From Deltaproteobacteria bacterium (GTDB taxonomy: Bacteria > Bdellovibrionota > FAC87 > UBA2466), in the NCBI GenBank assembly GCA_016875135.1, contig VGSE01000007.1:1-35393 (forward strand): a DNA stretch of 35,393 bases, written 5' to 3'. The position numbers and the translations under genes are program-made. The first letter of the stretch is position 1, and every line of letters starts with the position of its first letter. The notes under the pieces are model-generated. The model worked only from the letters and a program-made list of their open reading frames with translations, was not told where the DNA came from and did no database searches. Of the stretch, positions 12,845-28,890 are shown in pieces.

Positions 12845-12923
12845 TTGGTCCTCTATAAGTCTTTGCAATTCAAGAAAAAATATATCGAACTAGCCTCTTT
12901 AAAAGACCACTTAAAGGGAGCAA
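12845..12923 (-). repeat. dispersed intergenic repeat, copy A
   Basis: TTGGTCCTCTATAAGTCTTTGCAATTCAAGAAAAAATATATCGAACTAGCCTCTTTAAAAGACCACTTAAAGGGAGCA. Ungapped alignment to copy B at 18539 gives about 65/78 identity by eye. Confidence 0.85.
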
Positions 12924-12976
12924 GTATTTTATTTTCTAAAGCTTATAAATAAAACCCGATATAATTACAGCCCAAT

Positions 12977-16220: not shown

Positions 16221-16537
16221 ACTAGCTAATTATCACAACCCTCTTTCTATCTCAATGTAGAAGCCTTTCTCAGAGCCATTTTTGTTCGTTTAAGTCCCAT
16301 GTCGGCTTAAGAGATGAAATTAAAAAAATCAATCTTTTCAAAGGGAAGATTGTGAAAATGATTGTGATGGAAAATCCATCGAATGGAAAACGGGCCTCTT
16401 CTTCGTTACTTGGGGCTAGTACTTTTGTTAAAAAACATGCCTTAAGTCAAAAACAAAAAATAGGATGCTAAGATTCTAATTGAAATTCCAAAGAGTGGAA
16501 TCACTCATGTGAAATGAGTTTTTATCAGGAGGATACC

Positions 16538-18385
16538 ATGACTCAATTTCTTAAAACCTCAATTTTAGTTGTTGGAATTCTTTTCCCATTGTTGGGTTGC
16601 AAACAGGAAAACACGGCAGTCATTTCGGAGCAAAGTCTCACTGAATTCAGGAGAAATCCTGCACCCAGTGAAATTACTCTGGCTTCTGTTGGGATATCTT
16701 CGATTTTGAATTCAAAAAGCACCGATAGTGGATTTATTTCGGGGCCGGGAACGGGTGGAAATGACACTGGGACTGTTACTGCTCCCCTCATTGCCGTTGC
16801 TTTAAGTCCGATAGGAACCAGAATAGCTCAAGGTGTGAGCTTCTCATTTACTTTAATCGGAATTTATGCGGATGGTTCTAGCAAAAATCTGACTACTCAG
16901 GCGACCTGGAGTTCAACTCAGTCTGATGTGGTCTCGGTAGACAACACCGGAAAATCGCAAGCTAAAGAGCCAGGGACTTCTGTCATTATGGCACGAGTTC
17001 CTAATTTCACTGCCGTGAGTTCTGTGACTGTAACTCTTCCCGGGCAAGATCTCATCGCGGGCCCTCAAGGGCTGCCCGGACTTAATGGACGAGATGGATC
17101 AACTATTCTCACCGGCACTGAAAATCCTAAATCGGAGTTAGGAAAAGATCTTGATCTCTATCTTAATCAAATCAGTGGTGAATTGTTTCGCAAAGAACTC
17201 AATATCTGGAAAAGTATTATTACTTTGGTTGGGCCAGTAGGAGAAAAAGGAGAACGTGGCGAGAAAGGAGATCGCGGAGAAAAAGGGGATGCAGGTGAAA
17301 GGGGGGAAAGAGGAGAACAAGGGCTTCGTGGTGAGCAGGGAATTCAAGGAGAGCGTGGCCTGCAGGGGATCGCAGGTAGTGAGGGTAGATTTGGGGTCGA
17401 TGGAAAAGACGGCAGAAATGGAAAAGACGGAGTTAATGGCCAAAATGGAAAAAATGGGAACTCTATCCTTGCCGGTTCGGGAATTCCTGAACAGGACGTC
17501 GGCCAAGAGGATGACCTCTTTTTTGAACAAGAGAGCGGTGAGGTCTATAAAAAAGTAGATGGAACATGGGAATTTGTTTCTAGTCTTAAAGGAGAAACAG
17601 GAGAAACAGGAGAAATAGGAGAAACAGGAGAAACTGGGGAACGGGGGATTCAAGGCGAAACGGGAGAAAAAGGAGAACAAGGTTTTCAGGGCGAGAGGGG
17701 TGAACGAGGATTTCAGGGGATACAGGGAGAAAGAGGAATACAAGGCATTCAGGGAATTCAAGGCATTCAGGGAATTCAGGGTGTGGCTGGCGAGAAAGGT
17801 GAAAAAGGTGAGAGAGGGTATGGTGTTGGAGCTTTTTCAAGACCGACAAACCAATGTCCTGCAGAAGCCAATGGTGGAGTAGAGTTGGCGCTCTTTACCG
17901 ACCTGAATAGCAATGGAAATTTGGATTCCAATGAAATTGTTAATTCCGTTAGCGTGCTTTGCGGCGGGTTAGCGGGACGTGAAGGTAGAGCCGGAACTTC
18001 GTCTCGTATCACGGTAGAATTGGCTTCGCGAACTCTCTGTGCTGCCGGAGGCTATCTCTACACCACTCAAAACGGTAATGAAGCTCCCACTTCAGTTCCG
18101 GTTTGTCATGGAACTCAAGGGCTACAGGGACTACAAGGTCCTCCTGGGACTACAGGAGGAGGTGTGACTCCAGTTAAATTCTGTTCTTCGGATTTAACAA
18201 CTTTTCCGGAGTATGGCCTTTTAGTCGGAAATGAAATGTTTGCCGTTTATTGGGGGCCGGCCCCTTACAGCCAGGGACAAAATACGGCATTTTTAGCTAA
18301 ACTCATTCCCGGTTCTTATAGGTCCACAGGAGGAAATGGCTGTTACTTTCGTGTAATACCGGGAAATTTGATTGTTGAAAACTGA
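16538..18385 (+). CDS. collagen-like lipoprotein with Ig-like (Big_2-like) domain and C-terminal EF-hand-like/DUF7151-like segment
   Basis: SD AGGAGG before the ATG at 16538. Lipobox-like FPLLGC. Ig-like region 'IAVALSPIGTRIAQGVSFSFTLIGIYADGSSKNLTTQATWSS'. Long G-X-Y tracts (GEKGERGEKGDRGEKGDAGERGE...; GETGETGEIGETGETGERG...GIQGIQGIQGIQGIQG). 'DLNSNGNLDSNEIV'. Confidence 0.9.
   Translation: MTQFLKTSILVVGILFPLLGCKQENTAVISEQSLTEFRRNPAPSEITLASVGISSILNSKSTDSGFISGPGTGGNDTGTVTAPLIAVALSPIGTRIAQGVSFSFTLIGIYADGSSKNLTTQATWSSTQSDVVSVDNTGKSQAKEPGTSVIMARVPNFTAVSSVTVTLPGQDLIAGPQGLPGLNGRDGSTILTGTENPKSELGKDLDLYLNQISGELFRKELNIWKSIITLVGPVGEKGERGEKGDRGEKGDAGERGERGEQGLRGEQGIQGERGLQGIAGSEGRFGVDGKDGRNGKDGVNGQNGKNGNSILAGSGIPEQDVGQEDDLFFEQESGEVYKKVDGTWEFVSSLKGETGETGEIGETGETGERGIQGETGEKGEQGFQGERGERGFQGIQGERGIQGIQGIQGIQGIQGVAGEKGEKGERGYGVGAFSRPTNQCPAEANGGVELALFTDLNSNGNLDSNEIVNSVSVLCGGLAGREGRAGTSSRITVELASRTLCAAGGYLYTTQNGNEAPTSVPVCHGTQGLQGLQGPPGTTGGGVTPVKFCSSDLTTFPEYGLLVGNEMFAVYWGPAPYSQGQNTAFLAKLIPGSYRSTGGNGCYFRVIPGNLIVEN
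17590..17635 (+). repeat. 9-bp tandem repeat (GGAGAAACA) inside the collagen-like CDS
   Basis: ggagaaacaggagaaacaggagaaataggagaaacaggagaaactgg. Confidence 0.85.
17732..17782 (+). repeat. 18-bp tandem repeat (GGCATTCAGGGAATTCAA) inside the collagen-like CDS
   Basis: ggaatacaaggcattcagggaattcaaggcattcagggaattcaggg, encoding GIQGIQGIQG. Confidence 0.85.
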
Positions 18386-18402
18386 AGAGGTGCATTCCAT
18401 AA

Positions 18403-18434
18403 CTGCACCCTTTGAGTGGGCTTTTTAAGAGGTT
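18403..18434 (+). repeat. dispersed repeat arm, copy D (left arm of foldback element)
   Basis: CTGCACCCTTTGAGTGGGCTTTTTAAGAGGTT. The 24-nt core at 18409-18432 is the reverse complement of 18588-18611 at 23/24 positions. Confidence 0.85.
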
Positions 18435-18611
18435 CAAACGGCCATGAAGTTGGACTAAGGCGCGCAATTTATTGGCCGTTTGACGAAGAGGTGAATTATC
18501 AAATGAAACTCCAAGAAAACTTATCAAATCTCATAACCTTGGTCCTCTATAAGTCTTTGCAATTTAAGAAAAAACATATCGGACCAACCTCTTAAAAAGC
18601 CCACCCAAAGG
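18409..18611. other. ~200-bp intergenic foldback element (candidate MITE or structured ncRNA)
   Basis: 24-bp closing arms 18409-18432/18588-18611 (23/24). Internal perfect 10-bp inverted repeat TCAAACGGCC/GGCCGTTTGA (18434-18443/18474-18483). TTGGTCC/GGACCAA (18539-18545/18581-18587) abuts the right arm. Confidence 0.6.
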
Positions 18612-18616
18612 AACAG
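18539..18616 (-). repeat. dispersed intergenic repeat, copy B (right arm of foldback element)
   Basis: TTGGTCCTCTATAAGTCTTTGCAATTTAAGAAAAAACATATCGGACCAACCTCTTAAAAAGCCCACCCAAAGGAACAG. Aligns ungapped with copies A and C. Confidence 0.88.
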
Positions 18617-18699
18617 ACAAAAAAACAAATTGATGCGCTGCGCTGTTTTGTGGTATTTCATTGGGCAACGAGAACGAAAGTTTTCACAAAGGGGGGCCC

Positions 18700-19983: not shown

Positions 19984-20078
19984 GATGTTTGAGCTAAATC
20001 TAATTGCAGCACGAATTCGGCACGACCTCTCACGCATAACGAGAAGGCGCTAGGTTACGACCCAGGTATACTTTAACC

Positions 20079-28852: not shown

Positions 28853-28860
28853 TTTGTTAC

Positions 28861-28890
28861 CTGCACCCTTTGAGTAAGCTTTTGAAGAGG
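28861..28890 (+). repeat. dispersed repeat arm, copy E (solo arm)
   Basis: CTGCACCCTTTGAGTAAGCTTTTGAAGAGG vs copy D CTGCACCCTTTGAGTGGGCTTTTTAAGAGG (27/30). Confidence 0.75.

What the first reader, a model, noticed from the sequence alone, without database searches (positions are those of the whole stretch)
18389..18616. Foldback element with a 24-bp closing stem and nested hairpins between a collagen-like lipoprotein gene and a secreted-protein gene
Seen directly: 18409-18432 (CCTTTGAGTGGGCTTTTTAAGAGG) is the reverse complement of 18588-18611 at 23/24 positions. Inside it, TCAAACGGCC/GGCCGTTTGA is a perfect 10-bp inverted repeat starting 1 nt after the left arm. TTGGTCC/GGACCAA ends exactly at the right arm. 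A further 6-bp hairpin (GGTGCA/TGCACC, 18389-18409) touches the left edge. The arrangement could be a structured RNA with a multibranch junction or a MITE with terminal inverted repeats. No ORF explains it. Inference: non-autonomous mobile element or ncRNA.
Basis: partly seen in the sequence, partly recalled or inferred. Interest (0 to 1): 0.6.

Follow-up and report, generated by a model that had tools for sequence, protein, structure and literature searches.

The report
High-copy MITE driven by IS1-like transposase
The folded-back 24-bp arms belong to one worn copy of a ~223-bp non-coding jumping element, present in at least 40 near-complete copies and about 200 end sequences in this Bdellovibrio-relative's genome, which is most likely moved by the transposase of a separate IS1-like insertion sequence; it is a new family of an ordinary kind.

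Summary
The window copy (18399 to ~18619) belongs to a ~223-bp family with 34-bp terminal inverted repeats (TIRs; ATACCTGCWCCCTTTRARTGGGCTTTTTAAGAGG), no maintained ORF and two internal hairpins. The host is a Bdellovibrionota genome (sister species Bdellovibrionaceae bacterium UBA2466). It holds >=43 long copies and 201-213 TIR ends (control pattern 0-1), including deletion derivatives and head-to-tail arrays. Insertions make 9-bp target duplications (17 of 47 exact, 26 of 47 with >=7/9). Two insertion sites are empty in sister species, one with a size difference of 233-234 bp (223 + 9 within 1-2 bp). Congeners and a family member carry ~1.1-kb elements with the same ends (ATACCTG...CAGGTAT), one with an exact 9-bp duplication, encoding a 302-330-aa transposase related to IS1. 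Fragments of this transposase occur in the host genome, one inside the window (19985-20069). Mobilisation in trans is inferred. The ncRNA reading is not supported: hairpins are nearly invariant, orientation to genes is random, covariation is confined to the outer TIR. The 6-bp hairpin at 18389-18409 is not part of the element. Most unusual detail: precise, recurrent tandem junctions at which an exact TIR terminus meets a point inside the other TIR.

The parts
18399..18619 (+). MITE copy, near full length, right terminus decayed
   Evidence: BLAST to >=43 long copies in the same genome; family unit 223 bp
18399..18432 (+). left terminal inverted repeat (34 bp; ATAACTGCACCCTTTGAGTGGGCTTTTTAAGAGG)
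   Evidence: family consensus ATACCTGCWCCCTTTRARTGGGCTTTTTAAGAGG
18588..18619 (+). right terminal inverted repeat; the outer ~8 bp have mutated away from GGGTGCAGGTAT
18434..18483 (+). internal hairpin 1 (TCAAACGGCC/GGCCGTTTGA)
   Evidence: nearly invariant across 41 copies
18539..18587 (+). internal hairpin 2 (TTGGTCC/GGACCAA; consensus GGACCAG)
12846..12927 (+). truncated second copy of the same family (right part with right TIR 12905-12927)
28857..28890 (+). solo left TIR of the same family
19985..20069 (+). remnant of the IS1-like transposase gene ending in the IS terminal sequence CCAGGTAT
   Evidence: tblastn 14/16 identical to residues 281-296, E 6.8e-5; the DNA matches own-genome IS fragments at C13 and C210

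Best explanation
[quoted passage not shown] The element is ~223 bp with 34-bp TIRs and makes 9-bp target duplications. It carries no gene. A transposase made by a related ~1.1-kb IS1-like insertion sequence, with the same terminal sequence ATACCTG...CAGGTAT, most likely binds the TIRs, cuts or copies the element and inserts it into intergenic DNA. Shown here: repetition, TIRs, 9-bp duplications, empty sites, lack of a maintained ORF, and an IS with matching ends and a transposase gene in sister genomes, with transposase fragments in the host genome. Inferred: that this transposase acts on the MITE in trans, and that the internal hairpins only reflect the element's make-up or help its persistence.
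For:: >=43 long copies at 87-95% identity plus partial ones; 213 and 201 TIR matches, controls 1 and 0; 47 two-ended elements, modal length 223; 17 exact 9-bp duplications and 26 with >=7/9; no other length gives an exact one; random pairing gives >=7/9 in ~3%; copy at C46:3178 absent from the orthologous site in all five congeners; copy at C25:6403 absent in four congeners, spacing shorter by 233-234 bp (223 + 9 = 232). G010 element with TIRs and a 330-aa transposase; congener elements with the same ends, G003 with exact 9-bp duplication TATTCCTTA; the UBA2466 IS end matches the MITE TIR at 20 of the first 22 bases; all four transposases hit NCBIfam IS1 (best 2.4e-11); transposase fragments in the own genome, two at contig ends as expected of a multicopy IS; the 30-codon frame is broken in many copies.
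Against: The resident IS end found in this genome (ATACCTGGCCCTTTTGATTAGGCC) matches the MITE TIR at only 17 of 22 bases, so the direct driver may be another, possibly lost or unassembled, IS. The MITE interior was not traced to any IS. The G010 transposase scores below NCBIfam's IS1 cut-off (41.8 vs 100 bits). The window copy has no recognisable target duplication.
Confidence: 0.93

Rival explanations
1. A structured non-coding RNA or regulatory hairpin (for example a 3'-end processing or terminator element) kept for function and spread by duplication.
For: Very strong fold on both strands; all 23 real elements testable lie between genes; internal hairpins are nearly invariant.
Against: No Rfam match. 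Neighbouring genes are convergent 8, divergent 8, tandem 7, so no orientation preference. Covariation lies almost only in the outer TIR, not in the hairpins. One congener has a single 70% copy, the other congeners have none. 9-bp target duplications and empty sites show transposition. Terminator-like sites no more than in shuffles.
Confidence: 0.04
2. A REP/REPIN or IS200/IS605-type single-strand element moved by a tyrosine (HUH/RAYT) transposase.
For: Imperfect palindromes with internal hairpins, intergenic, high copy.
Against: 34-bp TIRs ending at fixed termini and 9-bp target duplications; by established knowledge HUH elements lack TIRs and make no duplications. An IS with the same ends encodes an IS1-related, not HUH, transposase.
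Confidence: 0.01
3. MITE moved by a transposase of another family that happens to make 9-bp duplications (for example IS256, IS4 or IS5 type).
For: The resident IS1-like ends match only 17/22; weak additional profile hits to ISL3 and IS256; 9-bp duplications are shared by several families (own knowledge).
Against: The UBA2466 IS end matches 20/22, and every related IS read here shares ATACCTG...CAGGTAT; one has an exact 9-bp duplication. No other element with these ends was seen.
Confidence: 0.06

Closest known systems
MITEAba12 of Acinetobacter baumannii (PMC6382973)
   Same: Non-coding, TIRs shared with an IS that supplies the transposase, 9-bp target duplications, identity to the IS confined to the TIRs, many copies
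   Different: 113 bp with 16-bp TIRs and driver ISAba12; here 223 bp, 34-bp TIRs, two internal hairpins, IS1-related driver
BrickBuilt MITE of Porphyromonas gingivalis (PMC4596501)
   Same: Intergenic MITE with tandem repetition
   Different: There a 23-bp minisatellite lies inside the element; here the whole ~212-bp element is repeated head to tail
MITEs of Haloquadratum walsbyi (PMC3119063)
   Same: TIR related to a known transposon, unrelated interior, target duplication set by the transposase; some with no intact partner in the genome
   Different: Archaeal host, other transposase families
IS1-family insertion sequences (NCBIfam NF033558; ISfinder family, own knowledge)
   Same: Zinc-finger-like N-terminus and profile match; 8-9 bp target duplication
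   Different: Single 302-330-aa ORF, score below the curated cut-off for G010, TIRs longer than the usual 15-24 bp (~30-60 bp); third catalytic acidic residue not obvious

Membership tests
MITE | short (<~600 bp), no transposase gene | tested here: met
   modal 223 bp; no maintained ORF
MITE | terminal inverted repeats | tested here: met
   34-bp TIRs in 40 aligned full copies
MITE | target site duplication of fixed length | tested here: met
   9 bp; 17/47 exact, no other length
MITE | multiple dispersed copies and empty sites | tested here: met
MITE | TIRs shared with an autonomous element | tested here: met
   20/22 with UBA2466 IS, 19/22 with the right end of the G010 IS, 17/22 with the own-genome IS
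MITE | mobilised in trans by that transposase | not testable with these tools
   needs a transposition assay
IS1 family (driver) | transposase profile match above curated cut-off | tested here: not met
   41.8 bits vs cut-off 100 for G010; E 1.1e-10; all four members hit, bits of the others not shown. So IS1-related, not filed as a member
IS1 family (driver) | 8-9 bp target duplication | tested here: met
   G003 element TATTCCTTA, exact 9 bp; MITE copies 9 bp
IS1 family (driver) | DDE catalytic triad | tested here: inconclusive
   D159 and D238 invariant in four proteins; third acidic residue ambiguous
Rfam ncRNA families | score at gathering threshold | tested here: not met
   no match in the whole window
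REP/REPIN (RAYT-associated) | no TIR/TSD; HUH transposase partner | tested here: not met
   TIRs and 9-bp duplications present; partner with matching ends is IS1-related

The most novel reading that the evidence does not exclude
The element repeatedly makes head-to-tail arrays with precise junctions in which an exact terminus (ATACC) is joined to a point 11 bp inside the opposite TIR, or the right terminus (GGTAT) is joined 18-20 bp inside the left TIR. This could be a transposase-driven local amplification (self-targeting of its own TIR on a sister copy) rather than ordinary recombination, making tandem MITE expansion a regular by-product of this IS1-like transposase.
Probability: 0.2. Interest if true: 0.45.

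Novelty: new member of a known kind. Interest (0 to 1): 0.3.

Why it matters
It adds a high-copy MITE family, with an IS1-related driver, to Bdellovibrionota, where my paper searches returned nothing relevant. It amplified mainly in one species, has many deletion derivatives, and coincides with many contig ends in this draft genome. For annotation, it warns that such foldback intergenic sequences should not be called ncRNAs on folding energy alone. The tandem junctions offer a way to ask how bacterial MITEs amplify locally.

Tried and rejected
The internal 30-codon ORF (ATG...TAA in the right half) was tested and rejected: 7 copies read MKL-stop and many are frameshifted. Terminator/promoter scan gave nothing above shuffles. 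Rfam gave nothing. Plasmid collection has no transposase relative; viral contigs have no TIR match. Pfam gave no significant family for the transposase. RNA covariation: pairs with both sides changed are almost all in the outer TIR (columns 9, 17, 19 and neighbours; hairpin 1 has one such sequence), which fits matched transposon ends rather than an RNA. One of the 47 elements (L090:869-1029) is probably spurious, and one copy (L092) was in reverse orientation; it was corrected.

Full report
What was claimed and checked. The 23/24 arm pair is the only one of its strength within 260 bp in the window, and none appears in 20 shuffles. Single-strand folding is far stronger than shuffles on both strands. 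Comparison with other copies moves the element to 18399-~18619. The outer hairpin at 18389-18409 is flank: no other copy carries it.

It is a repeat family. The own genome (2.66 Mb, 290 contigs) holds at least 43 long copies at 87-95% identity and many partial ones. The terminal sequence occurs 201-213 times against 0-1 for the reversed-pattern control. Several contigs end inside copies, so the number is a lower bound. The window itself carries three: the copy in question, a truncated copy at 12846-12927 and a solo end at 28857-28890. Deletion derivatives down to 52 bp keep both ends.

It transposes. Of 47 two-ended elements (one of them probably spurious), 17 have an exact 9-bp flanking duplication and 26 match at 7 or more of 9. 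No other length gives a single exact duplication, and random pairing of flanks gives 7 or more of 9 in about 3%. The copy at C46:3178 is absent from the orthologous intergenic site in all five congeners. At C25:6403 the distance between the conserved flanks is 233-234 bp shorter in four congeners than here, within 1-2 bp of 223 + 9. The window's own locus is too divergent for a clean empty site; one congener (G002) keeps the end of the collagen-like gene and has no element after it.

Who moves it. A TIR search in the family found, in another genus (G010), a 1.15-kb element with near-identical ends and a 330-aa transposase. Congeners G001 and G003 have elements with the same seven terminal bases and transposases ~49-50% identical to it; the G003 copy has an exact 9-bp duplication. 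G004 = Bdellovibrionaceae bacterium UBA2466 (the 4473-bp contig matches) has an IS end matching the MITE TIR at 20 of the first 22 bases. All four full transposases match the NCBIfam IS1 model (best 2.4e-11) but G010 scores below its cut-off, so I call them IS1-related. The host genome has fragments at C13, C210 and C92, and a remnant lies in the window at 19985-20069, ending in CCAGGTAT. The resident IS end matches the MITE less well (17/22), so which IS drove the burst is open.

Age and spread. UBA2466 carries one full copy at 70% identity; no copy was detected in the other four congeners. The family is therefore probably older than the species split and was amplified in the window's species.

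Not an RNA gene. There is no Rfam hit. Neighbouring genes are convergent 8, divergent 8, tandem 7. The short ORF is not kept. Across 41 copies, both-sided pair changes are concentrated at TIR positions 9, 16 and 18 (alignment columns 9, 17, 19), while the hairpins hardly vary. Matched changes in the two TIRs also occur between copies with closely related interiors, which suggests end pairs are kept matched, by selection for transposase binding or by conversion between arms; this was not resolved.

Tandem arrays. At least nine loci hold head-to-tail units. Eight share the junction CAAAG|ATACC, where the right TIR lacks its last 11 bp and the left end is exact; another (C167/C93) joins the exact right end to the left TIR 18 bp in, and C47 has a similar but one-base-short joint. 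Where testable, units within an array are at least as close to each other as to any copy elsewhere, usually closer, and whole arrays are flanked by one 9-bp duplication (C26; C167/C93). Two loci (C49, C108) share a third junction with the same spacer. Either dimers moved and were homogenised, or duplication recurred precisely in place. The first is favoured by the shared C49/C108 spacer, the second by private variants shared within arrays. This is the least ordinary part of the finding.

Verdict. A new MITE family of a familiar kind, with a likely IS1-related driver. Literature comparison: MITEAba12 (PMC6382973), BrickBuilt (PMC4596501), Haloquadratum MITEs (PMC3119063). A search for a described MITE in Bdellovibrio relatives returned nothing relevant; the paper library is partial, so this is weak evidence of novelty.

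Noticed in passing
window 19985-20069: Decayed remnant of an IS1-like transposase gene directly after the secreted-protein gene; it ends with the IS terminal bases CCAGGTAT.
   Followed up: partly
G000:C26:8260-8684, C97:9092-9640, C6:1-343, C167/C93, C47, C62, C12, C21, C49, C108 (L004, L031, L032, L035, L038, L070, L044, L046, L030, L033, L034): Head-to-tail arrays of the MITE with a few precise junction types, each array internally homogeneous.
   Followed up: partly
L062, L067, L073, L087: One-sided deletion derivatives that keep only the last few bases of the lost end (for example GTAT or CAGGTAT), in three of them next to an intact 9-bp duplication, probably microhomology deletions after insertion.
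   Followed up: partly
window 16514-18385: 623-aa lipoprotein-like protein with collagen triple-helix repeats and a weak Big_2 match; a homologous C-terminus is present in congener G002.
   Followed up: no
L097, L127, L128, L129 transposases: Divergent IS1-related transposases with long (about 30-60 bp) TIRs, no significant Pfam family (tested on L097) and no obvious third catalytic acidic residue; possibly a separate subgroup.
   Followed up: partly
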